Positions 411 to 64,000 of a stretch of 64,000 nucleotides of DNA are shown in pieces. The position numbers and the translations under genes are program-made. The notes below the pieces were generated by a model. It saw only the letters and a program-made list of their open reading frames with translations, was not told the DNA's origin and searched no databases. Numbering within the stretch: position 1 is the first letter of the stretch; the number at the start of each line of letters is the position of its first letter. This DNA comes from Paracentrotus lividus (taxonomy: Eukaryota > Echinodermata > Echinoidea > Camarodonta > Echinidae): assembly GCA_940671915.1 (NCBI GenBank), contig CALNVZ010002974.1, forward strand, positions 36,670,483 to 36,734,482, written 5' to 3'.

Positions 411-496
411 GGGAGAAGATACTCCTACTAACCGGCAGGCTGGTGGTGGATCTGGGGGCAGTATCTGGTTGGAATGCACAAAAATTGATTCTTCAG
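411..496 (+). CDS. Exon 1 (in window): glycine-rich module, GGGSGGSI strand
   Basis: 86 nt after a TTTGGCAG acceptor and before a GTAAAC donor. It reads ...AGGGSGGSIWLECTK..., the GGGSGGSI.I signature repeated across the gene. It enters needing one base of a codon and leaves in phase 1 (final G completed by exon 2). Too short to stand alone; the call rests on the signature and phase fit. Confidence 0.8.
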
Positions 497-866
497 GTAA
501 ACAACATTTAAAGTGATATTCCTGTTGTGAATGTCAAATTGAATTGTGGAAGAAATTGTGTTGGAGTCAATGGAAATGGTTGATTGTACTCACCTAAGTA
601 GTGTTGTATGCTGTAAGTTTTCAGAATCATCAAATGATAAAAAAAAAATATGAATCCCATTCACAGGGAAGAATAATGGTTAATCAGTGAATCTACAAGT
701 GAGATCCCAGAAAAATTTCATTGTTTGAATTTGGTTTTTAATCACTTTGAAATGAGAAACATGTTGATTAATGCATGGAGTTGAACTCATGTGTCGTCGA
801 CACAATCTCTCAGGATTACAGGCATGATTTTCTCCGCGGATCCGCGGATTTCGCGGATTTTGAATT

Positions 867-908
<42 letters not shown>

Positions 909-3900
909 ATGTACATAGCGGAGGTGTTTTTTTCGGCGGTGTTTTTCATTGTGTATTCTGGAAATATTTTCCGCTCTCACTGTGTGTAGAACTTGGAACA
1001 CAAGATTGCTTTGACGAAGTTGCAGCCAAAGAAATCATGAATTTTCTATACCTAAATTTGCAAAATTCGGTCGCTCCGCTCCCTCACTGGTAGCAATTTT
1101 CCTCTTTTTAAAAAATTTCTCTGTCTCATGCCTGGGATTAACGTCGAGAAGTGACGTCACAATATGTGCACAACTAGCACGCATGTATTATGTAATGCAC
1201 AAATTGATATATGTCTGTTTAAACCAAATTATTACCTACCAGGCACCATAGAAGCAGGTGGTGGTGATGGCTATGGATTGGGGGGAGGCGGAGGTGGTGG
1301 TCTCATCAAGGTTTCATATGAAGTTGGCTCCATCATACAAACTCCAAGGTCTTGTGGAGGAATAGGCTACCAGACAGGAGGTCCAGGAATAGTCTTGATT
1401 GAACAGAAGATGACCGGAACCTTTCACAATATGGCAAGTGCTAATTGAGCTATTGTCCTTATTTTTTACAAACCCTGTAGTCCATCTTTCACCAATCACC
1501 TTTCTGGGTCACCTTTGTAATATTTGAATGTGGTCATATGTTTTTCTTTCTTATTTTAATTCTGATGAAAGAGCTTCCTGTTGTATGAAATTAGAGCAAT
1601 AATATATTTTTGAGTCAAAAGTGTGTAATTGTTATATTGAAGCAGAGGAATTTTTCACATGTTGATGTAATGTAATTACATAATATTAGTGAAATGATAA
1701 ATGATCCTAAATATAGAGGAATTGTGATCCAGTAGATGATTTACAGGTCTGATGTTCAAAAGGGTTGTAGTTTAAGTCACTGCTTCTTCACGCATGTCCT
1801 TGTGCAACACATTTACCTTCATTTGCCATACTTGATCCAGTTGAGCTAAATGGGTACATGTAGAAAGAAATTCTATGGCTGATATTCATATAGATATAGA
1901 TAGTCTAGCTAAAAAAGCTGGTTATGATGGAGAGCACGCTTATAAATTTGCAAGGTGGATATGGCCGACTTACATTACAAGAAACATGTAATATTTATTA
2001 TGAAATTAATTTTAGAGATTAGACATTATGTGTCATAAAACGTTCTTTTTATTTCTTTCAATTTTCTTTCATGTAGATGTACATTTCAAATTGTGGGAGA
2101 GAAACAGATCGCTCTGCTCGTGTAGCTGTGCCATTCCCATCTCTCAGCCTGCAGACACTCAATATTCAAGATCAAGGAAGAGCCATCATTTTCTGCACTC
2201 CTGGAGATGTAGAAGTCTGCATGAGTGTTGGACGTGTCGTTGGAGACCGAACTGGCACAATTGAGTTAGACGAGAATGCATCAATGTTTCTTGAGGTTTG
2301 TGGTATCTCTGGCTGTGAGTACGAACACCAAACAGAACTGGATCTCACAATCAGTGTTATTGTTCAGTATGGGTCTTATATAAAGATGCCAAGTCACGTG
2401 ACATTGAGAGACGGTGTGACCTTTGACCTATGCGGGACAGTAGATGGTATTCAAGATGGAAGGGTTGATGTTAAGAGTGGTGGTAGGTTCCTTTCCAACT
2501 ACCCTGCAAGGACTGGACCTCAATCCTCGGAAGTCAGTGATCTTGGCATCCTGCGAATCAACAATGTACACATCTATCAAGATGGTACATTTGATGCATC
2601 ATCGATGTGTTCATATCCCAACATAAAACTTGATCTTGATTTTGCCACCTTTGAAACTCTCTATGGGTCATATTTCAATGGAGGACCCTTTAACCTTATC
2701 ACATCAAATCCAAGCATGGAACCTGCTGGGGATCCGTTACCATACAGCAATTGCACAGACAAAGGAACACTTGAATTGCTGTCGGGTCAGAATTGTACAT
2801 TGTCCCCAGGAATCTATGACTATGCATCCATTGTTATTCATGGAGGAGCTTTCCTGAAGATATTAGGAGATGAAAACGGCACCACGCTGACAGAGATTTC
2901 AGTAGTAGAACTTCACATTTTCCCTGGAGGGCTGATAGATGGAAGAGGTGCAGGGTTGAAATCGTTTGAAGACACATCAACAACCAAAGGCGGCAGCTAT
3001 GGTGGATATGGAGGAAACACTGAACAACATCCTCACGGGAGTGCAATCAACCCAATGGATTATGGCACCTATGGCTCAGGGAGCAGGGGAGGAGCACAGG
3101 TCAAGATAGTTGCCTCCAGGTGTGCTGATATTGATGGAGAAATTATCATGGACGGTGGTGATGTTAGCTTACCTAACCAAGGAGCTGGAAGTGGTGGTAG
3201 CATTTTCATCCAAACACCCTGTCTCAAAGGTTATGGTATCATCTCAAGTCAAGGGGGTAATGCAGCCACAAATGGAGGAGGTGGCGGTGGTGGAAGGATT
3301 TCTGTTCAATTTACAGATGATGGCAACAGCTTTATGGGATCAATGGATGTGGATGGTGGAAGTGGTGGAGGCTCTAGTGGTACTATCTACCTGCAGTCAT
3401 ATAGTGGAGAAAAGCATCTAGTCTTGGCAGGCTTGACTAATACCCCAACCCTCATAACATCTGATATATTGGATAATGTTGGTGAGATTGATATCCTGCA
3501 AATTACTGGTGGATACCACGTGGAATTGGACCTCAACATCACGATTGGAGAATTAAGAGGGGATCTAACCGGTCATGTTATGCTACATAGCAATTACACC
3601 ATCAAGGTAGATTCTGTGGAAAGTCAGGACCTGGGTGCAGAGTGCTCATTTGACATTGGAAAGCATGCTAGATTGATTTTCCCACATTCCATAATCATTC
3701 CCAGAACTTTGAACTTAGAGGGCATATTAATGACTGAATTGTTTATTCTAGGGGAAGGAGCATCTGCTACTCTATCAGGTACCCTCATGACAATATCTAT
3801 TGAATTACGAATGAACTCTGATCTCACTGTGAATAACAATGCCACCATTGGTCAGATGGCTTCACCTGGAAACATGAGCCTTACCAGTCTTATCATCGAT

Positions 3901-6900
3901 GTTAATGCCCATCTGGCCCTAAGTGAAAGCTACTCTATCAATGCACTAGACTTTGAAATGCACGAGAATTCAGCATTGAGTGTCAATTCGGACATGAAGA
4001 TTTTATCCATCAACTGTCAGGATGTCTACATTGCTTGGGGTGCCCATATTTCTGTAGATGCTGGTGGACATATCGATGGAATGGGTAGTCCTCCAGACCA
4101 TAGATCTGGTGCCAGTCATGGTGGTGAAGGAGGTGTATATGCAGGAACAGCTGGTCCAACTTATGGTTCTACATCCTCACCTTCTATGTTAGGAAGCGGA
4201 GTCACGTATGGCTCTTCAGAAGTTCGCGGAGGAGGAGCAATTTCTATCGAGGTAGAATTTGATTTGATATTGGAAGGGATGTTATCTGCAGATGGACAAA
4301 GGTCTCTGAGTGGCATTGGTGGTGGCTCTGGAGGAAGTGTTAACCTCAAAGTGAATGGTGTCCTAGAAGGTCATGGTACAATTAGTGCCAATGGAGGTGC
4401 AGGAAGTAACTCGGTAGGTGGAGGAGGAGGAGGTCGAATTTCAGTTTCATCCCGCCATGATAATTTTTACGGTATCATGGAAGCTTATGGAGCTAATGGA
4501 CACTCCAACGGTGCCGCTGGTACAATTTATGTAACCACTCTGACAGGTACCTTCACGTCTACATCCTCCTTTGTTGTTGATAATGCAGGTATCATTGCCA
4601 CCGGCAGTACAGTCTTTGATACAAACGAGGTAGAAGTCATTATTGATAAGGTTGTCATAAGGCGATATGGCCAGCTGAAGGTTAACAGTCCCCCACACTC
4701 TGCTGTTCGATTCCTGGACTTGGAAGGAGATAATACAGGAATACTACATGCTTCTGCTAACCAGACACTGTTTGTAGCATTAGAACAAGCGATTGCAACC
4801 TTCTACTACCTGACATGTGCCCTTGAAGTAGCGGAAAGTGCTGAGGTATACCTACCTCCAAACATTTACATCTCAAAATCGTTGGCAACAGAAACATCTT
4901 TTAATCTTGCTGGTCAATTGACAGGTGTGGCAAACCTTGTGATTGGAGCAAGAGCATCTATGAAGGTTTCCACTGCAGCTCATTCTGCAATTGTTGTTCC
5001 TGGTAGTGAACCAAATATTGACCCACCAGGAACTTTCTCTGCAACATCAATTCAGGTTCATGGACATGGCCAACTAGAATTTGAGTACTCTACAGAAACA
5101 TCAATCAAACTGGAATTGTTGAGTGGGTTGCATGTCAGATATGGTGGAACAGTTAAAGCTGGATGGTTGGAGATTAATGCTCCTTCTGTGGAAGTGGAAT
5201 ATGGAGGAACGATATCATGTACTGGAGGAGGATTTGGACCTGGTTTGGGTCCATGCCCAGGTCAGAGTAATCCAGGAGGTGGTTCTGGTGCTTGTCATGG
5301 TGGCTCAGGTGGACGGGCATCCAGTGGGGCAACAACCACTAATCTGGTAATAGGTAGCCTGTATGGTACCAAGGACTTTGGAAGTGGGGGTGGCAGTAGT
5401 GGTTCTGGAACTGGCGGGATTGGTGGAGGAGTGGTTTCCATTTCTTCACAGGCCATACGGATCGATGGCACAGTTAGCGCTAATGGTCAGGGAGGAAATG
5501 GAGCAGGTGGTGGAGGAAGTGGAGGTGCTGTTCACATCACATCAGAATCATGCACAGGATCAGGTCTTGTCCACGTTATTGGTGGTAATGCGATTGGAGG
5601 AGGTGGAGGAGGAGGGGGTCGCATTGCCATTTTCCTTTCTTCTGCAAGCAATTTCAAAGGCACCTTTGTCACCCATGGTGGAACTGCAACAAGGAGCAAC
5701 CAAGAAGGATCATCTGGCACAGCTCTCCTGCAAACTAAAATTGGAATCACTACTTCAAATGAACTTTACATCAACAACGAGGGTGCTCTTTCAGTTCTCC
5801 CGCTTGTAACCTTGATAAATGAGACACAGGATGAACCCCATACCTTCTCCATGTTGACCCTTCTAAACAATGTTCGTCTAGAAGTTGATGGGGAGGGTGT
5901 TGAGGTTGTGGTTGACAGTCTTATAAGTGATGCATCCTGCCAGATTCAGGTCCATGACACCATGATCCTGAGCTTGGAGACTGAACAGGATGCAGGTGTC
6001 TTCCATTGCAGCTTCCTTGTGGATACTGAGGGTGAACTCAGACTTCCATCCAGTGTGACCTTTCAGGGTACAAGCAACAACTTTGCTGGTAAGAAATGTT
6101 GCTAGATGGTTAGTGCAATGTAGGGATACATTAAAAGATTTGAAGAACCCCAAATGCATAATAGTTGGAAATTATAATAATAGTAAGGTCTTGATAATAG
6201 TATGGTCACTTATAATCTGAATCTTGCTTCTAAATACCCACGATGTCATTGAGACAGCTAGGGTATTTGTGTGACATAACTTATCAGATGCTTTCATACT
6301 ATGAGCAATGATATCTTGATGTCCTGATATCCTTGCCTGGTGCTGGAGGCATTATGTTTATTGAATCCATAATAATAATAATAATAATAGTTACATTATA
6401 TAGCGCTTAATACATATATCCACCTTGGTGTTTCTAAGTGCTTATAGTGTTGACTAATCCATCCTTCTTTTTTTGTCACAGACACTTTATCCCTGCTATA
6501 GCTTTTAAACATAAAATGGACTTCAGTCAAACAATCTGAAGTATGACTAAAGACAGAATATGTCTTTGTTTGATTCTCCCAGTGTCCAAATTTATGGATT
6601 AAACCAAGCTTATTATTCATGGTGTCTTCCCCAAGCTGTTGATATTGAGTATTTTAATAAGTAAGCACTTCAAATATTTGTGCAACCGGTGGACCTTATC
6701 CTTTGAATTCATATAGAAAAGTATTATCATATTACAATTCTTTCTAGAATTTGTTAATGTATCAGAAATCTGTAGGAACAATACATTCACATGTCTTCTT
6801 TATTTGATAGGTACTTTAACCAACATCTTTGAGCTTGTGGTTGGTAGCAACCAAGTTCTCTCGCTCTCCACTGAGGCTCGTATAGCCGTGTATGTTGGGG

Positions 6901-57900: not shown

Positions 57901-60900
57901 CCCTCTGTATCTGCAAACATGGGTTTGATGGTGATGCCTGTCAGACCTGTCGTCCTCGCTTCACAGGAGATACCTGTGACAGTTGCATCAGTGGCTACAT
58001 CGGTTACAACACCAGCTGCAGTATCTACTGTCTGCATGGCTATGCTTCTGAGACAGGAGGGACTGAATGCGAGTGCTATGATGATGATGAGCACGGTCAT
58101 TGGAGTGGAGAGAGCTGTCTTCAGTGTATGGATGGATTCGCCTTGCCTGACTGTAGATATTGTGCGGGAAGTAAGTACAACTGGAATGGTTCAAGAACTC
58201 TTTGGTTTTAAATTCTAAAGATTAAATGGAAGCAATTTATATCCTTGTAGTAAAGCATCATGGCAGGTCCAGTGGAATTTATTGCTACAGAACCAAACTT
58301 CTACAATGTACATCTCACCAGGGTAAGGATATTATTGAAGTACAGTCCTCCGTTCCTGTTTTAACGAGGTATTCTACCAAGCCAACTACTGTACAAGTGT
58401 TTTTTTTTTCGCGTACAGATATTTTCGCGGGATGTTAAATTCGTGGTCGGCAAAATCTGGAATTAAAAGTAACTAGAACTATAGGTATTCCATCTTTTCC
58501 TATTTGAAAAACGAGACATTATATTTATAAACAGACAGTAAAGTGGAATAAAGACTTACTACCTGAATTTATTTGACCTACATACCAGTCATCCACCCAT
58601 CGCGCTGTATCATTGTGTGTGCTATAGCGCTGCAAAGACAACTCTGCTCTGCGAGCGCATGGAGTTCAAAACATTTTCTATCGTTAATAAATTTGTGGTA
58701 CTGCTCGAAATCTCTTCACGCGATGTTAAATTCGCGGTCGCATCCCAATTCGCGAAAATGAAACCTTCGCAAAAGAAACCACTTATAAAATATGTTATTA
58801 TCTATAAAATTTTTCCTGTTCAGCATAACATGACCATTATCTAGTATTTATTCTTATTGTACTTGTAATCTCCTAGACTACGTTGGTGATTGCAGTATTG
58901 CATGCATCGAGGGTCAAGGTACTTACTCCGATGACCAGGATGGGTCAGGAGGTGAGGGCGCCCTTCAACCAATCCTGCAGTGTGTGACACCTAGGAATAG
59001 CACCTTTGATGGTGTTGCCTGGTTTGGCTATGAGAACCTGAACACTCACAATGTCTACCTTCCTATTGGCCCTGCCAATCACTTTGATTTCCATGACAAT
59101 GGAGGCCAACCAACTAAATTCAAGCCAGGGCGCCACTACAGTTCAGCCAGAATTACGTAAGAAATATGTTCTTGATTCCTATTTACTATATGTACTATAT
59201 GTATTTCTTATTCTCTTCACTCCTTCTCTCCTCCTTTTCTCCATTGCGCCTCGAGCAATCCTCAAAGTGGATTTGGCGCATTACAAATCTTATGTATTAT
59301 TATGATTATAATCGTTAAATGAAGTACATATTTTTTTTTTGCCAAAGTCTAAAAAATGTTTGGAGACCTGTATCTTAAAATGGTTTTACCTTAGCTCCCA
59401 AGGTTACGACACATACCTTAGTTAGAGCTATCAATAATATCATATGCAGACAAACCTGCTTCCCCTGCCATTTGCTCTGTTGTTATATTTGCATTTTATT
59501 GGTGTCGTTTTAGGCGGCATATCGCAAACATGTATTGCCAAGATTGAAATGAGGTATGCTTTGGAAATTATGTCTTTGTCATCTACATTTTTTCATTTCA
59601 TCCTGTTTTCTTAGGTTTGGTGATAAGGAATCAGCAACATGGTTCTTATCGTACAGTCCTTCAAACACACAGTTCATAGAGACTGCCTCAGTGCTAAACA
59701 GTAATGTTCGTCTGTGCACATCACAAGATGAAGACATGGCTCTAGTAAGTTAATGGGGATGGAAATATGTCATATAAACTAGATATTTCTTTGATATATA
59801 GTCCAATATTTTTTTTTGTATCTTCATACATTTAAATGTATCTCAGTACTTTTATGTATTAATACCTTTTGATAAAGTACGTAAATATGATGTAGGAAAC
59901 ATGCATGTGTACTAATATTAAACATGATAAATGTTAGTCAATCTTTTCATACAACATGAACATATTTTATTTGCTTACCCTGAAATAATTTTGGCTAGAA
60001 CATTAACAATTTAGAAAATGGAATAATTTTTATTTGAATTAGATACGTCCAAAACTCTTGATCATTTCATGCAACATATTTTTAACCAGGAATCAAATTT
60101 CAATAGTGTGGTATTTCTAATCGTAAATGTAAATATTATGATACATTTTATTTCTTACCATATTTTTTTTTATAATACTAATACTTTCCTGTCATTTTAT
60201 TACAGGAGGCCCAACTGCAATCAGTGAATGATAATCATTGCATCTGCAACCATGGGTTCTGGGGATCAGCCTGCCAGTATGAGTGCATGGGAGGGTCAAG
60301 TAACCCTTGCTTTGGCAACGGAATCTGCAACTCAACATCAGGATTGTGTCAGTGTAATAGTGCTGTTGAACAGGCTCCTGCGAACTGTACCTTATGTTCT
60401 GATGGAAGATTTGGCATAGATTGTTCTGTGGCGTCATGTACTAGGCTTGAAGATGAGAATGGAATGCGCTTCGCAGCTGCATACGGACCTGGACACTTCA
60501 CAACATTTGATGGATCATCGTACAGCTATCGCGGGGAAGGGGAGCATTACTTGATAAATGGTACTGTGGAGTTACAGGCTAGATTAGTACCATGCATACA
60601 AGCAAAGGCAGCAACCTGCATCAATTCATTAGCTTTTTCTGCGGGAGGTGGAAAAGCAGTAGTCATCCATGGAGGTTACACTGACGAAGATCTCGAGTTC
60701 AAGACCTGGATTGATGGAGCGTTGAGAAGCATAGAAAGAGATCTCCTGCTTGGCCATGGATTTTATATAAGTCACCTTTCGTATGACCACTATCTGATTT
60801 ACAAAACTGGCCTAATGGACATTGATGTTCACATCAGAGGGCGTTACATTGATGTCTTTATCAAATCAACAGCTGCTGCCTGTATTGATACACATGGACT

Positions 60901-63900
60901 CCTAAGTACTTGCAATTCAAACCCCTATGATGACTTTGTCCTATCTGACGGAAGCCGTCTTGACTTGCACAGAAGTAGTGTTAATCCTTTAAGTCAAGAC
61001 ACCATTCACAATGTATTTGGACCATCTTGGAAGATTAGAGACTCTTTCATCCTGTCACCAATTTATCTGCATGGCGATTACCAAGAAGTTCATGATGTGG
61101 AGGGCTCAGATGCAGGATATGCCCTTTACTTTGAAGATTCCTCTGTGAAATCAACTGGCCAAATCAACACTTTTACAGGACCAGACGTCACATTTGAACT
61201 CAATCTAAAGTCAGCAGAAGTATCTCCAGATTGCTCTGTAGTCTTCTCATATTCTCTTAAAGATACCTCGGGATTACTGTTGTGCAACAACTTTCTCACA
61301 ATTTCAATTGGCCCTCATTATGTCATACCATTCAGTATTGAGCTTCAGGTCGACACTTGGTATCAGATCTCTACGCTTTGGCTTAAATCGGTGGAAAGGC
61401 TTCAGTTGTATGCCTTATCTGATTCTTCATTTCAAACAGATTTCTTTGTAGTCAATGCCAACCATTCTGAGTTTCTTGATCCAGGTGGAGCCTTGGTGTT
61501 TGGACAATGGCAACTACCACCGGGTTATAATGGGCCATTTTTGTATGGAGGCTTCTCTGGATGGTTAGATGAAGTCAAGATCTGGAACTCTTACTATTTT
61601 GAAAGTGATATAAGGTCTCGTTTTGGTGTTGCTGCAGATGTCGCAGATTCAGCTCTGTCCAGTTACTGGATGATGAATGAAGGCCAAGGATCAGTGATCA
61701 AGGATGCGAAGTCAGTAATCACAATGACAATGCTCCCAGAAATGTGGAATCCACCTCAGTGGCAGTTCTCTTCATCTACTGTTCGTAGATCCAGTATTTC
61801 AACAATCAAAAGTATTTATGACCCTGCCTGGTTCGATTCATCTATCCAAGTTACTGCAGAAGACTTCTGCTCTAGTATCATTACTGATAGTATTTCATCA
61901 CCCTTTAGCATTTGCTCAAGTCTGCAGATTACATCCTACTATGCAGAACTATGTGCTGCAGATACGGCTCTCTACGATACAATCTCCCATTCCATGGAGG
62001 TTATTATTGCTTATTCTACACATTGTAGATCTATTCTAAATCTGGAAGATTCTCCTGCACAGTCGTACTGCAACTATTTCCAAGGAAGGCGCTTTCCTGA
62101 CTGGATAGGTGAATCGTGCAACATTCCATGCTTATCTGGAGCAGGGCAATACAACTGCACCTGCTACACTGGCTATTGGGGTGAAGCTTGTGAGCAAACC
62201 TGCCCAGGAGGTGGTGGCTCATTTTCATGTGGAGGTGTCGGTGTATGTCTTTCAGACAATGGTGATTGTGACTGTCCGCTGTCCTATGATCCATCAACAA
62301 ATTGTTCCTCATGCAACTTTGGATGGTCTGGAAAGGACTGCTCAGTGACTACTGTGAACAGTACAAACATAGTTAAGCCTGTCTGTACCATGTTTGGGTC
62401 TGGACGCATTGTAACCTATGATGGACTCACATTGACTCTAGACAGTCCTGGTGAATACCATTTAACTCGGGTTGGAAACATTGATGTGTATGTCAGACAT
62501 ACTCCACAGCCCGATCTGTCATCGAGGATAACCTCCATTTGGTTGATGCTGGCAGAAACCAGTTTAACGTTTCAAGTTTCTGCATCGGGTGATGGATCAG
62601 TAACACTGTACTTGGATGAAGAATCTTTTACCCCATTATCAGACACAATTTTTCCATCTGGACATATCCTCCACATATCTTACGATAGTTATGAGGTGTA
62701 TGACAACAACAGTGTTGTGGTCATTGTACGTCATCAGACATATCTTGACATCCAGGTAACAACCACTTTTGAAACTTGCAGGAATTTGACTTTGACAAGA
62801 GCTTTTATCGGTGGTAACTGTGACAAAGACCCATCCAATGATATTCATATCAGTTTGAATGAATCTATTGACCCAGCAGATATAAGTTATGATATCATAA
62901 ATGGGCCATGGGCTAAGTATATAAGGCTGCCTGTTGACTTTCCAACAAAGTTTAGGTATCACTTTGACAATCACATCGATGCACAAGACTTGACACCTGG
63001 TGGATACGGATTATACTTCAATAATTCAAGATGTATTAGCAATCAACTGTCCGATGTTATTTTCAGTGAGGACCTTGATGTGACCATTGAATTCCTGTTC
63101 TTTCCCTTTGACAGTGAACCAGGTTGTTTGTTCTCATACCTGGACCTCTCTGGTAGCAATTTCTTGGCTGTGACCATTGATATAACCTTACACATTCATG
63201 CATCTTCATCTCCGGTCATTGATACAGGCATCCAACCTGACATTGGTCACTGGGGTTTCATATCCTTAGCATATCACAGAGAAATAGGAGGCTGTACCAT
63301 TGTTTATGTGAGCAACAACCAAAATATGAGTGGGGGGTCATTTGATATCGGGACAGGATACTTCTTAACAGGAAGTAATGTTGCTTTTGGCACCTGGCAA
63401 AGCAATTCAGATTTTGAATACCCATATGCAACTGCATTCCAGGGTCACATGGACGAAATTCGAATTTGGAAAAGAACATTTGATCTGACAACAATATGGC
63501 ATAATGTAAACCTTAACATCGAAAGTGAAACTTCTGAGCTTGTCGCTCTTTGGAAGTTTAATGAAGGAGAAGGAACAAAGGCCACAGACATAATCAGCCA
63601 AACTCAACTCCAGTTTTCAAACAATGAAGGACCATTCTTTGCACTTTGTGGTGCCCCAATTGATTCTAGTGCCAAAACATTTAACTACCTTGAGGTTTAC
63701 AACAGATACAAAAGTTCAGATTCAAAACAAGAAATATATGACCATTGTGCAGAAATAATCTTTGATTTAGACTTGATTTATGCATGCAGTTTTTTAGGTA
63801 GTTCTGTTTCTCAGTTTTTCCTGCAGAATTGCTTCTATGACTCCTCTCTATCCCCAGACAATCTTTTATCATATGTAAATGCAAGACTTTACTCCTCGTA

Positions 63901-64000
63901 TTGTGCAGCAGCTTTAGAACTAGAAGAATCGCCTAAGACTGAATTGTGCTACAAGGCTAGTAGCCACCCTGATACTTTCTTTGCCCTTGGTTGCACCGAA
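411..64000 (+). CDS. Giant multimodular extracellular protein gene, 31 exons, both ends outside the window
   Basis: This entry is the whole gene; exons are listed one by one below. All 30 introns have plausible splice sites, and reading phase is kept at every junction (19 phase 1, 8 phase 0, 3 phase 2). That gives about 9,280 codons, counting one exon without its LTR insertion. Order of parts: at least 15 glycine-rich modules (0.4-41.7 kb), an EGF-like cysteine-rich array (41.7-58.2 kb), a beta-sandwich-like domain (58.9-59.7 kb), then EGF, VWD-like, LamG-like and C8-like segments (60.2-64.0 kb). Known biology: EGF, VWD and LamG domains occur in secreted or cell-surface proteins, and phase-1 introns are typical of shuffled extracellular modules. 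Many NxS/T sites fit a glycosylated secreted product. Inference: a matrix, coat or adhesive protein. No signal peptide or transmembrane segment lies in the window, so anchoring is unknown. An alternative reading as two adjacent genes is unlikely, because exon 20 encodes both the last glycine-rich module and the first EGF repeats. Confidence 0.88.
497..1242. other. Intron with a poly-T tract and CG-rich palindromic repeat
   Basis: No gene seen. At about 830-860 there is a run of CCGCGGATCCGCGGATTT-type sequence followed by an uninterrupted poly-T (about 871-906). It could be the tail of a minus-strand retroposed copy, but I cannot name the family. The small open frames here are made of this low-complexity sequence. 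Confidence 0.5.
1243..1433 (+). CDS. Exon 2: end of a glycine-rich module, GC donor
   Basis: 191 nt, acceptor CTACCAG. It reads TIEAGGGDGYGLGGGGGGG then LIKVSYEVGS and GGIGYQTGGPGIVLIEQ, matching the usual GG.GGGGGGRI..., GG.GG.GTVYL pattern of the module end. It ends in phase 0 at ...FHNM. The donor is GCAAGT rather than GT; the next exon continues the expected YISN.GR pattern, so a GC-AG intron fits best. Confidence 0.78.
1434..2076. other. GC-AG intron, no gene seen
   Basis: Starts GCAAGT and ends TTTCATGTAG. AT-rich, with no repeat or open frame of note. Confidence 0.55.
2077..6088 (+). CDS. Exon 3: 4.0-kb exon with three glycine-rich modules
   Basis: 4,012 nt open throughout, entering in phase 0 after TTTCATGTAG and leaving in phase 1 at a GTAAGA donor. 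The frame opens with MYISNCGRETDRS; that Met is probably internal, because the module pattern continues from exon 2. GDRTG lies near 2239, and GDNTG followed by NQT near 4728. Three glycine-rich halves are clear: about 2986-3410 (YGTYGSGSRGG, GAGSGGSIFI, GGGGGGGRISV), 4110-4550 (GASHGGEGG, GGGSGGSVNL, GGGGGGRISV, GAAGTIYV) and 5230-5745 (GFGPGLGP, GSGGGSSGSG, GGGSGGAVHI, GGGGGGGGRIAIF). Between them are strand-rich stretches with N-glycosylation sites. It is the second largest internal exon in the window, with no intron at positions where other modules have one. Confidence 0.93.
6089..6810. other. Intron with AAT microsatellite and a dispersed AGCGCTT repeat fragment
   Basis: No gene. An (AAT)n tract at about 6371-6390 runs into TATAGCGCTTAATACA and then CCTTGGTGTTTCTAAGTGCTTA (to about 6440). 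Related fragments occur in other introns of this window near 28486 and 40108. Confidence 0.55.
6811..7142 (+). CDS. Exon 4: strand-rich half-module
   Basis: 332 nt, acceptor TATTTGATAG, donor GTATGT. Phase 1 in, phase 0 out. It reads TLTNIFELVVGSNQVLSLS, then YTFISPRGVYSLASIIIQEH and LQIDYGGTLEVPRLYLEG, and closes with GGSLGGPGQGV. This corresponds to the G.FSF..L.V..GS and L.I.YGG.L stretch just before the GHGG.GG block. Confidence 0.88.
7143..7790. other. Intron, no gene seen
   Basis: AT-rich intron between GTATGT and CTTTCATAG. A poly-T is present near 7301. No supported feature. Confidence 0.55.
7791..7983 (+). CDS. Exon 5: GHGG block of a glycine-rich module
   Basis: 193 nt. It reads NGTGGGHGGYGGSPEG, VAYGDVMRPERGGSQGG and GSGGAGGGFLSIIL...TING, the GHGG.GG / YG...P..GGSGG order seen throughout the gene. 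Donor GTAAGA; the final G is completed by exon 6. Confidence 0.88.
7984..8504. other. Intron, no gene seen
   Basis: AT-rich intron ending CACCATGCAG. Short open frames on both strands look random. Confidence 0.55.
8505..8685 (+). CDS. Exon 6: GGGSGG strand of a module
   Basis: 181 nt. It reads MITVDGKPGVGSSGGGSGG, GIIMDVQDLNGYGSIRAQG and GGGGSGGRISIHSQN. Phase 1 in, phase 2 out; the last two bases AT pair with T at the start of exon 7 to give Ile. The following intron, 5.8 kb, carries most of the repeats of the left part of the window. Confidence 0.88.
8720..9111 (+). repeat. 42-bp minisatellite, left array
   Basis: Tandem copies of a 42-bp unit (TATATCCCTGTCCTAATGGG, then GCTTATTGCAGTCAAGTACATG), about nine copies, the first two more diverged. 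Because 42 is a multiple of three, the array is open in several frames and yields false ORFs such as (CPNGAYCSQVHVYP)n. The array resumes after the Tc1-like insertion. Confidence 0.9.
10400..10930 (-). pseudogene. Tc1-like transposase remnant
   Basis: Read on the minus strand it contains FQHDRDPKHAAKHIKA, the second catalytic Asp region of Tc1-type DDE transposases, then an open stretch (10519-10701) with HLKRQRPLDSPSNLQQLQ and ELSAKLVNSMPRRLMTALE, the family's C-terminal end. In-frame stops lie between the two blocks. It is a mirror image of the plus-strand remnant at 11310-11790. Confidence 0.75.
11310..11790 (+). pseudogene. Tc1-like transposase remnant, opposite orientation
   Basis: It reads YNNDPKNTASHIKAISQHKH and APLSPDLVRI, then a stop, then RGDLKRQRPL and LSAKLVDSMPRMLMTVLEAK. 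This is the same C-terminal region as the minus-strand copy at 10400-10930. The Asp of the D.DPKH motif is replaced by Asn, so this copy would be inactive even without the stop. Confidence 0.75.
11937..12670 (+). repeat. 42-bp minisatellite, right array
   Basis: The same unit as 8720-9111, about 17-18 copies, many with small insertions or deletions and some truncated (for instance near 12230). A higher-order duplication is visible: the block around 12120-12260 recurs around 12330-12420. The last copies give way to the TIR element at 12688. Confidence 0.9.
12688..13783. mobile_element. 1.1-kb TIR DNA element, no transposase seen
   Basis: Left end AGCGATTTCACGTTCGGTG and right end (minus strand) TGATTTCACTTTCGGTGTTG are inverted copies, rich in GGTGTTAGTGTT. 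CTCATTG is found on both sides (12681-12687 and 13784-13790), a 7-bp target duplication. Internal sequence has no transposase-like frame, so this is a non-autonomous copy. Family not identified; the exact end is uncertain by one or two bases because the duplication and the TIR overlap in sequence. Confidence 0.75.
13791..14512. other. Intron tail, no gene seen
   Basis: AT-rich sequence with several homopolymer runs up to the TCCAATTGCAG acceptor of exon 7. A 60-codon frame at 14202-14384 has no recognisable content. Confidence 0.55.
14513..14748 (+). CDS. Exon 7: module end (GGAGTTYL) and VDN linker
   Basis: 236 nt, acceptor AATTGCAG, donor GTAAAA. It reads LSYAGTYDTRGGESSISS, then HLGAAGTTYLADKLSD and RMIVDGYQTRSTPRHAV, then FFLDSLDIRG. 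This matches the F.G.Y.A.GG / GAAGTVY / L.VDN pattern. The first base completes an Ile codon with exon 6. Confidence 0.86.
14749..15000. other. Short intron
   Basis: 252-bp intron from GTAAAA to TTTTTTCTCAG. Nothing else seen. Confidence 0.6.
15001..16162 (+). CDS. Exon 8, left part, cut by an LTR retrotransposon
   Basis: Acceptor TTTTTTCTCAG. It reads YAYLELGHPTSSLDVATMI, GDKSATVFLRSGHILLV, ... SVSGKSMSNVGQDIGGAC, GGYGGPGGVG, PSFGTIYEPTLFGTKGEGSQ, GAGSGGSVWIRA, GSGGGGRIAIHVL, GHGGPGSIYF and ELNNNVLFHL. Coding is interrupted after the first two bases of a Pro codon at 16162, where the LTR begins. The host reading resumes at 23176. Leaving out the element and one copy of the 4-bp duplication, the exon is 1,890 nt and its end phase matches the next exon, so the break is due to the insertion and not to a wrong exon call. 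Confidence 0.9.
16163..17070 (+). repeat. Left LTR
   Basis: Begins TGTGAGGAGCCTGG and ends CCTCTTTACA. At 908 bp it is longer than the right LTR (693 bp), because the segment starting TTAATGTTATACGCA occurs twice (near 16194 and 16435). It retains the shared CTCCGTAGCGGCTAGTC and GAGGCTTCTCAGACTGGAG blocks near its right end. Confidence 0.85.
17731..17988 (-). pseudogene. Retroelement protein remnant, possibly protease region
   Basis: An open minus-strand stretch of 85 codons with IPSRVVLVL and LMAVLGMNVLQNC. The LGMN(V/F)L pattern is common near the end of aspartic proteases of Gypsy-type elements. It fits the minus orientation of the internal LTR copy at 19814. Weak call, based on a short motif. 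Confidence 0.35.
19814..20455 (-). repeat. Internal LTR copy in reverse orientation
   Basis: On the minus strand it carries the same GAGGCTCTCAGACTGGAGAA, GACTCCGCTTCTTCTCCCGT and GTTATACGCAC blocks as the outer LTRs and ends in CTCTTTACA, followed by ACTGGCGACGAGG. It shows that the element is not a simple single insertion; it has a nested or inverted second copy. Confidence 0.8.
20470..21130 (+). pseudogene. Gag-like remnant with a CCHC zinc knuckle
   Basis: Plus-strand fragments in different frames. The knuckle CFYCGRIGHFQREC at 20708-20749 has CX2CX4HX4C spacing, typical of retroelement Gag proteins that bind RNA. Orientation agrees with the right LTR and its purine tract. The region is broken; it is treated as a fossil. 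Confidence 0.6.
22479..23171 (+). repeat. Right LTR
   Basis: Begins TGTGAGGAGCCTGGAATTG directly after a purine-rich tract and ends CCCTTACA. Its start and end match the left LTR. It is followed by TGCC, the target duplication, and then host coding sequence. Confidence 0.88.
23176..23903 (+). CDS. Exon 8, right part, after the LTR insertion
   Basis: The host frame resumes with DDDQTRNLDLRKVEGDG, then TGLLHIHASQTILYEQ, the GD.TG...NQT signature that follows the VDN linker in other modules. Later come VNLDIDEQGIIIFSPLTF, LDLRGRMLGVHDL, GAGHGSFGGAGVDG, RPYGSLYWPVRRGSD and SSGGGKGGG. Donor GTAAAG at 23904; ends in phase 1. Confidence 0.9.
23904..24269. other. Intron, no gene seen
   Basis: AT-rich intron ending CACCTCCAG. 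Confidence 0.55.
24270..24383 (+). CDS. Exon 9: I.GSI strand of a module
   Basis: 114 nt. It reads TVHIMSNDLIVDGSISVSG, GGASGGSVIVQAYLFTG, the L.IDG.I...G...GGGSGGSI.I signature. Phase 1 at both ends. Confidence 0.88.
24384..24887. other. Intron with a dispersed AGCGCTT repeat fragment
   Basis: No gene. Near 24428-24490 TATTATTATGCTTTTCACC and AAAGCGCTTACAAAG resemble the short repeat also seen near 6371 and 28486. Ends TTTTTTTACAG. Confidence 0.5.
24888..26899 (+). CDS. Exon 10: 2.0-kb exon, module end plus one full module and the next start
   Basis: 2,012 nt, phase 1 in, phase 0 out at GTAAGT. It opens SGEIDANGGAGSNNHGGGS and continues GGGSGTVYLWQPQ and SLLIDNQNR. One whole module follows: VLGDRTGLLQSHAGQT, PVNFIIDSQSEMIFAP, ... 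GAGGAGHANLGG, AYYGSIYLAEERGSDGG, GGGSGGSLHL, GGGSGGIITVY. The next module starts with LLIDNQYR, LLGDLTGLIRIHSNQ and LPVNLQIDPDG. Several NxT sites are present. Confidence 0.93.
26900..27173. other. Short intron
   Basis: 274-bp intron from GTAAGT to CCCCTCAAAG. Nothing else seen. Confidence 0.6.
27174..27354 (+). CDS. Exon 11: strand half and GAGHG block
   Basis: 181 nt. It reads DIKWASVFSAEYFNITSSD, then LEIEATLDCSGRGLENDGPG and GLVPGAGAGHATTGG. This is the usual E...L...GRG...GPGAG.GAGHGG sequence. Phase 0 in, phase 1 out. Confidence 0.86.
27355..28104. other. Intron with a hairpin (MITE-like) repeat
   Basis: No gene. The hairpin at 27369-27530 is listed separately. The rest is AT-rich and ends GTTTCCATTAG. 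Confidence 0.55.
27369..27530. repeat. Hairpin, MITE-like
   Basis: CCGGGATGTGTTTCGCCAAG followed by TTATGC is inverted against GCATAACTT...CTTGGTGAAACACCCCCTGG. About 160 bp in all, with an imperfect stem. Shape and size suggest a non-autonomous fold-back element. Family unknown. Confidence 0.6.
28105..28332 (+). CDS. Exon 12: YGSLYEP block of a module
   Basis: 228 nt. It reads TDCEGGTMYGSLYEPTDAG, SRGGDDSHGNPGARGGG, HIRIRVGSIFHLDGILDADG, then GGGGSGGAIWISTG. Phase 1 at both ends, so the exon is symmetric. Donor GTACGT. Confidence 0.9.
28333..28866. other. Intron with a dispersed AGCGC repeat fragment
   Basis: No gene. About 28486-28600 reads AATAATCATAATAGATTACA, then TAGCGCTAATACAATAACACC and TTGGAGTTTGTAAGCACTTA, the same short repeat type as at 6371. 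Confidence 0.55.
28867..29216 (+). CDS. Exon 13: GGGAGGRIALH block and linker
   Basis: 350 nt. It reads HIRGHGEAKASGGHGDQSS, GGGAGGRIALHISDKDEYRG, GGGDHGGTGTVYVEEY, RLYLDNQGFTP and FAFDEVTLQGG. The last is the Y.FDEV.L signature that opens the strand half of the next module. Phase 1 in, phase 0 out. Confidence 0.9.
29217..29391. other. Short intron
   Basis: 175-bp intron from GTAAGT to TTGCACACAG. Confidence 0.6.
29392..29752 (+). CDS. Exon 14: GD.SG...NQT strand half
   Basis: 361 nt. It reads IEFQLSPEGFDSPQLS, ILGDASGLLYIQPNQTFYI, VPPVNFHVSQDSTVYLP and MVGVYNLTIGDGKVMEIGH, the standard strand half. Phase 0 in, phase 1 out at GTAGGA. Confidence 0.88.
29753..30165. other. Intron, no gene seen
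   Basis: AT-rich intron with TATA-type simple sequence near 29850. Ends GTGTTGCAG. Confidence 0.55.
30166..30462 (+). CDS. Exon 15: strand half and GAGHGG block
   Basis: 297 nt. It reads HIRVGHIELESWSGFVSP, YITAESLHMTINDLSLEGD, LDVSARGPGQEQGPGAG and GAGHGGYGGGAEHLNYTYG. Phase 1 at both ends. Confidence 0.9.
30463..30786. other. Intron, no gene seen
   Basis: 324-bp AT-rich intron from GTATGC to TATCTTTTACAG. Confidence 0.55.
30787..36978 (+). CDS. Exon 16: 6.2-kb exon with four complete tandem modules
   Basis: 6,192 nt without a stop, phase 1 at both ends. It starts VPYGSYITPTHPGSGGG. The GD+TG signature recurs at 31410, 32670, 33921, 35157 and, as GNKKG, at 36411, so the coding repeat is 1,236-1,260 bp (412-420 residues). 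In each unit the order is VDN linker, Y.FDE..L, PDN...V..H.FIGDRTG.LHLR.NQT, E.VESE.N.T.APCSF.ID.GAEI.FP, GT...I.GLI.GVH.LYI, SST..TAL, GNFSF, E.K.GG.L.MN, ES.G...LD.RG, GPGAG, GAGHGG.GG, YGS...P...GSGGGNG, GGGSGG, NMTGHGEI...GGNG, GGAGGR.AIH. A single conserved Cys sits in APCSF. Units two to five are more alike to each other than to modules elsewhere, which suggests recent tandem growth. Confidence 0.95.
36979..37471. other. Intron with a CA microsatellite
   Basis: No gene. An impure (CA)n tract runs at about 37021-37110. The rest is AT-rich and ends ATTTAAAG. Confidence 0.65.
37472..37581 (+). CDS. Exon 17: YGDLFNP block
   Basis: 110 nt. It reads GNNGGSAYGDLFNPNSPG, then GCGSSGGNGGGVIHLNIGT. 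Phase 1 in, phase 0 out at GTAAGC. Confidence 0.85.
37582..37812. other. Short intron
   Basis: 231-bp intron ending CAAATCTATAG. Confidence 0.6.
37813..37963 (+). CDS. Exon 18: GGSGGSLVL strand
   Basis: 151 nt. It reads RMVCDGTISVNALSQSINYQ, then SGGSGGSLVLKTNIFRGHG and AVIANGAVGTSG. Phase 0 in, phase 1 out at GTAAAG. Confidence 0.86.
37964..39031. other. Intron with a hairpin repeat and short tandem copies
   Basis: No gene. About 38278-38340 holds three copies of GTTATATTGAACGGTTTTT-type sequence. The hairpin at 38541-38726 is listed separately. A 62-codon open frame at 38351-38539 has no recognisable content. Confidence 0.55.
38541..38726. repeat. Hairpin, MITE-like, with CTCGGCCTATGGCCTCGG centre
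   Basis: AAATAGTGCATGCTT at the left is inverted as AAGCATGCACTATTTA at the right. Inside, CAAATACTAAATTATC..CTCG and CGAGATAATTTAGTATTTG continue the stem around the near-palindrome CACCTCGGCCTATGGCCTCG. About 186 bp. A fold-back element of unknown family. Confidence 0.7.
39032..39327 (+). CDS. Exon 19: module end and linker
   Basis: 296 nt. It reads GSTSGYGGGSGGRIALYIN, FRGTVQALGGLGSHTGYAG, GPGTVYRYIEAEDRI, ELEVDNSGHSGNAHTV and YEFDNVMLLRGAKLTLQ. Phase 1 in, phase 0 out at GTAAAT. Confidence 0.9.
39328..40647. other. 1.3-kb intron with simple repeats and a dispersed repeat fragment
   Basis: No gene. A (TTGAA)n tract lies near 40088-40110. AATAATAATATTTGGGATTT... CTAAGCACTTTACAG (40108-40190) is another copy of the AGCGCTT-type short repeat. 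The remainder is AT-rich. Confidence 0.55.
40648..43905 (+). CDS. Exon 20: last glycine-rich module fused to the EGF-like array
   Basis: 3,258 nt (1,086 codons), phase 0 at both ends. It starts GSTGVVRKGTIHELKGDG. The final glycine-rich half (about 41161-41690) has GPGRGYTCSSYTGSGAGHGG, NIYGEACLPVYAGSGGG, GGGSGGSIWLDS and YGGGGGGGRIRTF. From about 41700 it turns into EGF-like repeats: CSNHGYWDSTTETCTCEEG, CNGHGLCTESGDCLC and so on. From about 42160 a composite unit of several EGF-like motifs recurs: GCPG...DCSGHGDCN..THECTCHPGWSG.GC, then IPDCPGEPDC...G.CN, NC..GFMG..C.EPC.NGTQ.P..SGIC.CDP.F.G.GCD.ECS.HG. EGF-like folds are extracellular and disulfide-bonded. This exon physically joins the two halves of the protein. 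Confidence 0.93.
43906..44264. other. Intron, no gene seen
   Basis: 359-bp AT-rich intron from GTAAGT to CTATATACAG. Confidence 0.55.
44265..44616 (+). CDS. Exon 21: EGF-like repeats
   Basis: 352 nt. It reads TCICDNGYFGNDCSFFC, CQCNPCYTGFECNVVCSG, GQCKSGECVCTNNEIES, then GCPGEDSSCNGHGTCNAG, ECTCYPGWSGKDC and DCPGVPSCSG. Phase 0 in, phase 1 out. It continues the composite EGF unit of exon 20. Confidence 0.92.
44617..45130. other. Intron, no gene seen
   Basis: 514-bp AT-rich intron ending TTTCTCTTGCAG. Confidence 0.55.
45131..45317 (+). CDS. Exon 22: EGF-like repeats
   Basis: 187 nt. It reads GNGVCEDKQPRQCSCSEQ, WTGSACDIPCVNGKNTDG, RCICDPCYTGIGCTEIC, NSNGQCDDG. Phase 1 in, phase 2 out at GTAAGG. 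Confidence 0.9.
45318..45708. other. Intron, no gene seen
   Basis: 391-bp intron ending GGACCTCACAG. Nothing else seen. Confidence 0.55.
45709..46607 (+). CDS. Exon 23: EGF-like repeats, almost two composite units
   Basis: 899 nt. It reads TCICDYKSGFRGERC, GCPGNLTDCSGHGTCN, CVCDPGWQDIGCQFPDCPG, CLCENTYMGYACELRC, CECDPCYSGLDCGSFC, then a second unit GCPGEGADCSNHGQCN, CTCNPGWTGVGCHIADCPG, CVNCTAGWMGVACDVPC, CACQPCFNGFGCDRLC and the start of a third. Phase 2 in, phase 1 out at GTTTGT. Confidence 0.92.
46608..47068. other. Intron, no gene seen
   Basis: 461-bp intron; the plus-strand open frame at 46728-47111 is intron sequence running into exon 24. Ends GTTTATCAG. Confidence 0.55.
47069..47242 (+). 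CDS. Exon 24: EGF-like repeats
   Basis: 174 nt. It reads TCLCNQGWTGVGCEIADCPG, DPDCNDRGSCFTEVTIPEC, SCDVGWMGEACEIPCGP. Phase 1 at both ends. Confidence 0.91.
47243..47679. other. Intron with a short tandem repeat
   Basis: No gene. About 47333-47445 holds two to three copies of a unit of roughly 45-50 bp containing CTTTTGGAAGG, AAGCTGCATCAAAATTACCCC and TATTACAGG; one copy has a run of eleven or more C. Ends TTTTTTACTAG. Confidence 0.6.
47680..48189 (+). CDS. Exon 25: EGF-like repeats
   Basis: 510 nt. It reads DHGVQFPMDSGICNCTDPC, WHGVSCLDLCSGPEQGSC, GQCECQSGYWGEFCEIESC, CSGHGVCQEDRTCKCDGE, NDCNGYGVCDGASGIPVC, CVCDPCSSGPACDQECAGHG, NCVGGVCQCDQAWWG. Phase 1 at both ends. The intron that follows carries the DIRS-like element. 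Confidence 0.93.
48545..48695 (-). repeat. Left inverted terminal repeat of the DIRS-like element
   Basis: Inverse of two stretches at the right end (54484-54530 and about 53718-53750). It lacks the outermost AT-rich 40 bp found at the right end, so the two termini are not of equal length. The left boundary is approximate. Confidence 0.7.
49837..50650 (+). repeat. About 315-bp tandem repeat inside the DIRS-like element
   Basis: AGAAAATTGTGGTTTCTGTC, or a one-base variant, occurs at about 49848, 50164 and 50479, each followed by CTCACTTAGG, GAGAGTCGTGCGCC and CAGGCATGCC. Three or nearly three units of roughly 315 bp. They lie in the part expected to hold the first open frame of the element. 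Confidence 0.75.
51300..51800 (+). repeat. Tandem repeat with GGGCTTCGCACCAGAGGTGA in the DIRS-like element
   Basis: CGCTCCCTATCCCTCGGGCT followed by TCGCACCAGAGGTGACG occurs at about 51347, 51508 and 51676, with a diverged copy near 50898. The period is about 160-170 bp. Each unit also holds TACCAAGCGGGGTT and ACACTGGCCTGGTCTCAACC. Confidence 0.8.
53530..53640. repeat. Internal complementary region of the DIRS-like element
   Basis: Contains CAAGGTAAGAGAGAGGTCA, then AAATTAGCACTAATTTTATT and GATAATCACATGACCTCTCT. The first part matches the right terminus and the second its reverse complement. In DIRS elements such a region guides circle closure during replication. Confidence 0.6.
53839..54470. 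other. Assembly gap (632 N)
   Basis: A run of N inside the right terminal repeat region of the DIRS-like element. All open frames drawn across it are artefacts. Confidence 0.99.
54560..54767. other. Intron tail
   Basis: Host intron sequence between the retroelement end and exon 26; ends CTTGATTCAG. Confidence 0.6.
54768..54929 (+). CDS. Exon 26: EGF-like repeats
   Basis: 162 nt. It reads PICSYRGCPGEGTNCTDHG, YCDTQRQECSCRMGWKGQG, CDVPDCIGEPDCGGNG. Phase 1 at both ends; it continues directly from exon 25 (DQAWWG, then PICSYRGCPG). This shows the DIRS-like insertion lies in an intron and leaves the coding order intact. Confidence 0.92.
55092..56749. mobile_element. 1.66-kb TIR DNA element with GGGGTTAGTTGGAAC ends, no transposase seen
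   Basis: Left end GGGGAGAGTGGGGTTAGTTG, right end (minus strand) GGGGAGAGCGGGGTTATATG, with TA on both sides (55090-55091, 56750-56751). Further inside, GGGGTTAGTTGGAACA recurs directly near 55715, and inverted and direct copies stand side by side near 56525-56565. No transposase frame was found, so it is non-autonomous or too decayed. TA duplication suggests a Tc1/mariner-type mechanism, but the family is not identified. A CG-rich TTCGCG-type repeat is nested at about 55360-55570. Confidence 0.72.
55360..55570. repeat. TTCGCG-rich dispersed repeat, nested
   Basis: Contains TTTTCGCGCGATTAATTTTT, then TATATTCGCGGGTTTTTAAA and ATTCGCGGCTGCC. It resembles sequence at 58420-58790 in another intron (ATATTTTCGCGGGATGTTAA, AAATTCGCGGTCGC). 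Family unknown. Confidence 0.5.
56899..57288 (+). CDS. Exon 27: EGF-like repeats
   Basis: 390 nt. It reads YCNGSYNPVPQCDCYNGWIG, CINGTQHPSDPNQCVCHPC, YGGLSCDLECNNRGGC, CLCDQFFKGSLCEDFDCPG, EPDCSDRGSCIFRDEEAFC, CDPGFTSGNCSELVCPG. Phase 1 at both ends; donor GTGAGA. Confidence 0.92.
57289..57873. other. Intron, no gene seen
   Basis: 585-bp intron ending TTTCATTCCAG. Confidence 0.55.
57874..58170 (+). CDS. Exon 28: last EGF-like repeats of the array, laminin-type look
   Basis: 297 nt. It reads TCTLIGDTPLCICKHGFDG, DACQTCRPRFTGDTCDSC, ISGYIGYNTSCSIYCLHGY, GTECECYDDDEHGHWSGESC, LQCMDGFALPDCRYCAG. The C..C...F.G..C..C...Y.G pattern is closer to laminin-type EGF than the preceding units. Phase 1 at both ends. 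Confidence 0.9.
58171..58876. other. Intron with TTCGCG-type repeats
   Basis: No gene. About 58420-58480 and 58710-58790 carry related GATGTTAAATTCG(T/C)GGTCG segments; the second adds AATTCGCGAAAATGAAACC. Probably one decayed repeat with internal duplication. Confidence 0.5.
58877..59156 (+). CDS. Exon 29: EGF remnant, then a beta-sandwich-like domain (first part)
   Basis: 280 nt. It reads NYVGDCSIACIEGQGTYSDD, GALQPILQCVTPRNSTFDGV, AWFGYENLNTHNVYLPIGPA, NHFDFHDNGGQPTKFKPGRH. The FGY.N.N...V.LPIG..N.F......GQPT.F.PG.H pattern is one I have met in secreted bacterial and animal proteins as a small beta-rich domain, but I cannot give it a family name. It ends in phase 2 and continues in exon 30. 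Confidence 0.88.
59157..59614. other. Intron with a dispersed repeat tail
   Basis: No gene. About 59245-59315 reads CATTGCGCCTCGAGCAATCC, TGGATTTGGCGCATTACAAA, then TTATTATGATTATAAT, a common style of short retroposon tail. Ends CTGTTTTCTTAG. Confidence 0.5.
59615..59744 (+). CDS. Exon 30: end of the beta-sandwich-like domain
   Basis: 130 nt. It reads FGDKESATWFLSYSPSNTQ, FIETASVLNSNVRLCTSQD, EDMAL. Phase 2 in, phase 0 out at GTAAGT. The final Cys could pair with the QCV Cys of exon 29, a point for structure prediction. Confidence 0.87.
59745..60205. other. Intron, no gene seen
   Basis: 461-bp AT-rich intron ending TTTTATTACAG. Confidence 0.55.
60206..64000 (+). CDS. Exon 31 (runs off the window): EGF, then two VWD-like / LamG-like / C8-like cassettes
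   Basis: 3,795 nt (1,265 codons) open to the last base, phase 0 at entry. Order: EGF-like (CICNHGFWGSACQYEC, CFGNGICNSTSGLCQC, about 60230-60430). VWD-like 1 (about 60440-60960): YGPGHFTTFDGSSYSYRGEG, EHYLINGTVELQARLVPC; the usual GDPH is GPGH. LamG/ConA-like 1 (about 61107-61720): GYALYFEDSS, GALVFGQWQ, GGFSGWLDEVKIWN, SYWMMNEGQG. C8-like 1 (61860-62095): EDFCSSIIT, FSICSSLQITSYYAELC, STHCRSILNLEDSPAQSYC. EGF-like (62115-62345). VWD-like 2, more diverged (62385-62860): CTMFGSGRIVTYDG, GEYHLTRVG. LamG-like 2 (62997-63600): GYGLYFNNSRC, GHMDEIRIWKR, LVALWKFNEGEG. C8-like 2 (63730-63960): DHCAEIIF, FFLQNCFYDSSLSP, YCAAALELEESPKTELC. VWD-type domains help secreted proteins bind or multimerise. 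No stop codon is reached. Confidence 0.92.

What the first reader, a model, noticed from the sequence alone, without database searches (positions are those of the whole stretch)
411..64000. Giant glycine-rich module / EGF / VWD-LamG protein, possibly undescribed
Seen: about 9,280 in-frame codons over 31 exons with at least 15 copies of a roughly 400-residue module, then an EGF array and VWD/LamG/C8-like cassettes. Neither terminus is in the window, so the full protein is larger still. The module's glycine-rich half (L.I.G.I...G...GGGSGGSI.I, G.G.I...GG.G, GGGGAGGRIAIH, GGAGTVY) has the look of a right-handed beta-solenoid, each I.G.I...G forming one turn. I do not recognise the combination in any named matrix protein.
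Basis: partly seen in the sequence, partly recalled or inferred. Interest (0 to 1): 0.8.

Follow-up and report, generated by a model that had tools for sequence, protein, structure and literature searches.

The report
Giant animal protein with bacterial-type repeats
A huge, probably animal, extracellular-protein gene is built from at least 15 copies of an unnamed ~410-residue beta-solenoid repeat whose complete two-part form turns up otherwise only in giant proteins of Chloroflexota bacteria, which suggests that an old bacterial surface-protein repeat was captured and multiplied.

Summary
An independent splice model gives one + strand gene of 32 exons and 9,292 stop-free codons, open at both window ends. 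A ~413-residue module runs head to tail in 14 full copies, one diverged first copy and a terminal fragment. It is followed by about 34 teneurin-type EGF repeats and then VWD cassettes. Single uninterrupted exons contain both the module-EGF and the EGF-VWD junctions, so this is one gene. The module is absent from Pfam and NCBIfam and has no sequence match in the PDB.

The guess that the module is confined to a few marine lineages is wrong. Its glycine-rich half is widespread in bacteria: Verrucomicrobiota 29/288 genomes, Planctomycetota 14/199, rarer elsewhere. The whole two-part module was found only in Chloroflexota: 156.5 bits over 386 of 394 positions, against at most 1.1 bits in 200 shuffles. 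Those bacterial proteins are giant PA14/Ig/RHS proteins. Best reading: a secreted rod-like matrix or adhesive protein whose rod derives from a bacterial module, probably by ancient horizontal transfer. Direction of transfer, host species, eukaryotic distribution and function are not shown.

The parts
411..1433 (+). exons 1-2 of the model (411-496, 1243-1433): start of a diverged first module copy; the gene is open at its 5' side
   Evidence: splice model; module HMM iE 3e-7; the 1243-1433 exon uses a GC donor
2077..6088 (+). exon 3, 1,337 codons: rest of copy 1, copies 2-3 and part of copy 4
   Evidence: ORF, model, module HMM
6811..16163 (+). exons 6811-7142, 7791-7983, 8505-8685, 14513-14748, 15001-16163: module copies, model aa 1430-2131
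   Evidence: HMM coordinates run on across introns
23147..30462 (+). exons 23147-23903, 24270-24383, 24888-26899, 27174-27354, 28105-28332, 28867-29216, 29392-29752, 30166-30462: module copies, model aa 2132-3564
30787..36978 (+). 6.2-kb exon holding five tandem copies (module HMM 480-657 bits each)
37472..39327 (+). exons 37472-37581, 37813-37963, 39032-39327: module copies continued
40648..43905 (+). one exon that carries the end of the last module copies (to about 41640) and then the start of the teneurin-type EGF array: shows that modules and EGFs are one gene
   Evidence: translation; Pfam EGF_TEN 2.4e-66; module HMM
44265..58170 (+). EGF array exons 44265-44616, 45131-45317, 45709-46607, 47069-47242, 47680-48189, 54768-54929, 56899-57288, 57874-58170
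58877..59744 (+). exons 58877-59156 and 59615-59744: short segment without Pfam match, with NTHNVYLPIG..NHF..GGQPTKFKPGRH
   Evidence: weak match in Chloroflexota genome G764, E 4e-5
60206..64000 (+). last exon seen: EGF, VWD, possible LamG, cysteine-rich segment, EGF, second VWD, weak LamG; runs off the window
33042..34298 (+). rephased full module used for the AlphaFold2 model (glycine-rich half residues 1-210, non-glycine half 235-419)

Best explanation
This is one gene for a very large secreted extracellular-matrix or adhesive protein, most likely of an animal. Each ~413-residue module folds as a parallel beta-solenoid (predicted). At least 15 modules in series would make a stiff rod of very roughly 100 nm (inference: about 14 rungs x 0.48 nm per module). 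The rod is joined to a flexible disulphide-rich EGF stalk and to VWD cassettes that could bind, or link molecules, as in other VWD matrix and adhesive proteins (inference). The module is an unnamed domain family: its glycine-rich half is a bacterial surface-protein domain, and the complete two-part module is shared with giant Chloroflexota proteins. The simplest history is ancient capture of a bacterial module, then tandem amplification and fusion to animal EGF and VWD parts (inference; direction not proven).
For: Stop-free 32-exon model with modules continuous over introns. Junctions module-EGF and EGF-VWD lie inside single exons. AF2 pLDDT 92.5, pTM 0.91 with 40 rows. VIA-align matches over most of the model are parallel beta-helices: VacA p55 Z 10.6 over 266 residues, antigen 43 Z 8.9, tailspikes and pectinases. 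Glycine-half profile hits 12 bacterial loci at 105-141 bits with no hit in shuffled or reversed controls. Non-glycine half: the top 11 of 73 bacterial linkers, scored with the animal-only profile, are all Chloroflexota (hhalign 41-111; best from another phylum 28); combined Chloroflexota profile score 91 against at most 16.8 for column shuffles. Full module 156.5 bits over 386/394 positions, blastp 28-30% identity over about 350 aa, E 8e-16; 200 shuffles at most 1.1 bits. 13 of 14 animal modules group together (96/92), nearest to Chloroflexota L041.
Against: No transcript or expression data. No signal peptide or C-terminus in the window. Host species unknown, and no eukaryote collection could be searched, so the module may be old and widespread in eukaryotes. 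Foldseek gave no PDB match better than E 0.19, and Z 8-10 can reflect only a common arrangement. The glycine-domain tree does not resolve the place of the animal copies, and the full-module tree has no outgroup, so direction of transfer is open.
Confidence: 0.6

Rival explanations
1. The module is an old domain of both bacteria and eukaryotes, inherited vertically or passed from eukaryotes to Chloroflexota; no bacteria-to-animal transfer took place.
For: Animal and Chloroflexota modules are only about 28-30% identical; trees have no usable root; eukaryotic distribution could not be tested.
Against: The glycine-rich half occurs in Chloroflexota, Planctomycetota, Verrucomicrobiota, an alphaproteobacterial MAG and an Aminicenantes MAG in varied giant proteins, which points to a bacterial home. 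Intron positions are scattered and largely unshared between copies, compatible with an intron-poor start.
Confidence: 0.35
2. Two or more neighbouring genes (module gene; EGF/VWD gene) are wrongly joined.
For: No transcript evidence; three introns of 5.8-7.0 kb, one of them with an assembly gap.
Against: One uninterrupted ORF in 40648-43998 holds module end and many EGFs; 60182-64000 holds EGF and VWD; several intron-bearing module copies are complete only when spliced.
Confidence: 0.04
3. The bacterial similarity is convergence of glycine-rich low-complexity sequence, not homology.
For: About 17% glycine in the module region; beta-solenoids converge easily.
Against: Window-shuffled, fully shuffled and reversed controls give no hit at all or at most 1.1 bits; the non-glycine half also matches, specifically in Chloroflexota.
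Confidence: 0.02
4. A decaying or assembly-damaged locus rather than a working gene.
For: A 632-N gap at 53839-54470; repeats invite assembly error.
Against: 9,292 codons without a stop; neighbouring copies are diverged (34-51% identical to one copy), so collapse or chimera is unlikely.
Confidence: 0.04

Closest known systems
Giant Chloroflexota proteins with the same two-part module (L001, L002, L005, L022, L040, L041, L044, L045)
   Same: Complete module, glycine-rich plus non-glycine half, 2-3 in tandem, about 340-360 aa period
   Different: Intron-free; in the two examined the module sits with PA14 or LamG, Big_1, DUF6531 and RHS repeats, not with EGF and VWD; fewer copies
Verrucomicrobiota and Planctomycetota surface-type proteins (L003, L004, L008, L010, L011)
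   Same: The ~190-aa glycine-rich domain in tandem
   Different: The linkers between copies do not match the animal non-glycine half
AgmC N-terminal domain, NCBIfam NF047640 (named for an adventurous gliding motility protein)
   Same: Weak profile matches to bacterial relatives of the module (best 56.7 bits, cut-off 275)
   Different: The window's own modules give no match
Teneurins
   Same: Teneurin-type EGF array; [quoted passage not shown]
   Different: No YD/RHS shell in the window; beta-solenoid array and VWD cassettes instead
VWD-type animal adhesive proteins such as sea star Sfp1 and flatworm or Hydra adhesive proteins (PMC7037938)
   Same: VWD plus EGF in a large secreted protein
   Different: None in that paper's table is listed with a solenoid array of this kind

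Membership tests
NCBIfam NF047640 AgmC_N | score above curated cut-off of 275 bits | tested here: not met
   No match for P0001 or P0003; bacterial relatives at most 56.7 bits
Teneurin | EGF_TEN / EGF_Teneurin repeats | tested here: met
   PF25024 2.4e-66 and PF23106 1.5e-48
Teneurin | C-terminal YD/RHS shell and N-terminal transmembrane segment | not testable with these tools
   Both termini lie outside the window; none reported in the parts scanned
Gel-forming mucin / VWF D-assembly | VWD domain | tested here: met
   PF00094 8e-14, two stretches
Gel-forming mucin / VWF D-assembly | C8 and TIL after VWD | tested here: inconclusive
   Neither reported by Pfam at E<=10; cysteine-rich segments follow VWD
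Parallel beta-helix / solenoid fold (module) | stacked parallel beta rungs | tested here: met
   AF2 pLDDT 92.5 all-beta model; structural matches are mostly beta-helices; prediction only, handedness inferred from the matches
Chloroflexota two-part module family | both halves present and alignable over full length | tested here: met
   156.5 bits over 386/394 positions; hhalign 98.3% for the second half alone
Any Pfam-A family for the module | score above gathering threshold | tested here: not met
   None for P0001, P0003, other module exons, or A4 members

The most novel reading that the evidence does not exclude
An animal, or a unicellular ancestor, captured the entire two-part beta-solenoid module from a giant Chloroflexota surface protein of the RHS/PA14 type. 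It multiplied the module to at least 15 copies and fused it to teneurin-type EGF and VWD parts, creating a new class of giant extracellular rod protein.
Probability: 0.45. Interest if true: 0.75.

Novelty: new variant of a known kind. Interest (0 to 1): 0.62.

Why it matters
It adds an unnamed domain family, absent from Pfam (2025 copy) and NCBIfam (2026), that links bacterial giant surface-type proteins with a giant animal matrix-type protein. If the transfer reading is right, it would be another case, beside teneurin, of a bacterial large-protein part being built into animal adhesion machinery. The module profiles built here make that directly testable in eukaryote proteomes. The rod could also be of material interest as a very long natural beta-solenoid.

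Tried and rejected
No whole genome is held for the window, so host, paralogues and flanks could not be read. The 11-row alignment A1 was too diverged for pattern scans. IMG/VR scan with A2: 363 pattern stretches, none a relative. Plasmid and phage tblastn: no match. PHROGs: only phrog_13336, no function, best E 2.3e-7. The first AF2 job cut the module inside the glycine domain and gave pLDDT 69.6; rephasing and adding bacterial rows solved it. Foldseek against the PDB gave no E below 0.19 for either model. A tree on the glycine domain alone, 126 rows, was unresolved. The first splice model, with a weak intron penalty, made spurious micro-exons. HMMER of the animal non-glycine half against bacterial loci was only suggestive (11.6 bits against control 5.5); profile-profile comparison made it clear. 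The searches of Verrucomicrobiota and Planctomycetota with A5 were empty, but A5 itself contains Chloroflexota rows, so the animal-only comparison is the fairer test. Rfam: nothing. Literature searches found no described protein of this build.

Full report
OBSERVATION. The window holds very long + strand open frames with one run of 632 N at 53839-54470. I wrote a splice-aware Viterbi gene model (codon-position Markov model plus donor/acceptor scores, retrained from seed regions). Introns number 31, median 514 bases, and 19 are phase 1; coding GC is 0.46 against 0.39 in introns. A profile of the ~413-residue module, built from five copies in the 30787-36978 exon, maps onto the spliced protein as 14 complete consecutive copies, a diverged first one and a terminal fragment. 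Most copies that are split by introns become complete only when spliced, which supports the model. The exon 40648-43905 encodes module end and EGFs in one frame, and the exon at 60206 encodes EGF and VWD in one frame, so the parts belong to one gene.

DOMAINS. Pfam finds nothing in the modules, EGF_TEN and EGF_Teneurin in the array, VWD in two stretches, and only a sub-threshold Laminin_G_3 near the end; C8 was not found. NCBIfam and PDB sequence searches of the module give nothing credible.

BACTERIAL RELATIVES. A scan of one genome per prokaryote species with a five-copy alignment found 12 loci in Chloroflexota, Planctomycetota, Verrucomicrobiota, an alphaproteobacterial MAG and an Aminicenantes MAG. 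These are mostly tandem copies in long open frames. A profile of the ~190-residue glycine-rich half, built only from the window, scores 105-141 bits on them and gives no hit on shuffled, 20-residue-window-shuffled or reversed versions. Non-glycine positions are shared as well, such as the YGS...P...GSGGG and GGRIAI stretches. Samples of whole genomes: 29/288 in the phylum of G009 (Verrucomicrobiota, from the record title of L011), 14/199 in that of G003 (Planctomycetota), 2/398 in that of G005 (Pseudomonadota), 2/251 in that of G001 (Chloroflexota); cut-offs were 1e-15 or 1e-20. Orders containing Chloroflexota carriers gave 6/201 and 2/5.

THE SECOND HALF. Bacterial copies are separated by linkers, mostly of 55-190 residues. 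With the animal-only profile of the non-glycine half, 73 linkers were scored one by one: the top 11 are all from Chloroflexota (scores 41-111), and the best from any other phylum is 28 over 26 columns. Five Chloroflexota linkers combined score 91 at 98.3% probability, against at most 16.8 for 40 column shuffles and 15.1 reversed. A full Chloroflexota module (L041, genome G1257) aligns with the full animal module over 386 of 394 positions at 156.5 bits; blastp gives 28-30% identity over about 350 residues at E 8e-16; 200 window-shuffles reach 1.1 bits at most. Whole-genome searches with a combined profile found the second half in Chloroflexota carriers and not in 402 Verrucomicrobiota and Planctomycetota genomes; that profile includes Chloroflexota rows, so it leans their way. 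The two Chloroflexota proteins examined are over 5,000 residues long, with PA14 or LamG, Big_1, DUF6531 and RHS repeats.

STRUCTURE. The rephased module with 40 rows gives an all-beta AlphaFold2 model, mean pLDDT 92.5, pTM 0.91. VIA-align places it among beta-helices: VacA p55 Z 10.6 (rmsd 6.7, 266 aligned), tapirin 9.1, antigen 43 8.9, tailspikes and pectinases about 6.5-8.6. Foldseek has no significant match, so the fold class is supported but no close relative is known. From the DSSP string, strands in the glycine-rich half recur about every 33 residues with long glycine loops; the other half has short rungs of two to three strands.

HISTORY. The glycine-domain tree is unresolved. In the full-module tree 13 of 14 animal copies lie on one side of a branch (96/92), with the two L041 copies next to them (88/98); the fourteenth has a branch of 3.05 and is not placeable. 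Introns lie at scattered, mostly unshared places in the copies, and several copies lack them, which fits introns gained after amplification, but unequal loss is not excluded. A bacterial home for the family is likely from its spread; transfer into the animal line is the simplest reading, but with no eukaryote collection and no root it is not shown.

FUNCTION. Inferred only: secreted rod plus EGF stalk plus VWD binding or multimerising end, as a matrix, cuticle, mucus or adhesive component. 96 N-glycosylation sequons in the model fit an extracellular protein.

Noticed in passing
window 8728-9111 and 11935-12668: Two intronic arrays of the same 41-42 base unit (TGTATATCCCTGTCCTAATGGGGCTTATTGCAGTCAAGTACA), 9 and 18 copies, about 3 kb apart in one intron.
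   Followed up: no
window 50001-52000: GC-rich island (0.625) with a 164-base unit repeated 2.9 times, in the 6.6-kb intron that also holds the N gap.
   Followed up: no
window 16192-16664: 242-base unit duplicated in tandem just after the exon ending at 16163.
   Followed up: no
window 58877-59744 (model aa 7920-8015): Short segment with NTHNVYLPIG..GGQPTKFKPGRH, no Pfam match; weak matches in Chloroflexota genome G764 inside 2,710- and 5,985-residue frames (E 4e-5 and 1.3e-4), so possibly another bacteria-animal shared piece.
   Followed up: partly
L058, L059 (Chloroflexota): The module sits in giant proteins with DUF6531/RHS repeats; teneurin's shell has an RHS/YD-type origin and this gene has teneurin-type EGFs. 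The coincidence is unexplained.
   Followed up: partly
genome G005 (alphaproteobacterial MAG): 32 copies of the glycine-rich domain in a 2.1-Mb genome, spread over many contigs.
   Followed up: no
genomes G109, G419, G961: Open frames of 14,967, 12,772 and 12,929 residues carrying the glycine-rich domain.
   Followed up: no
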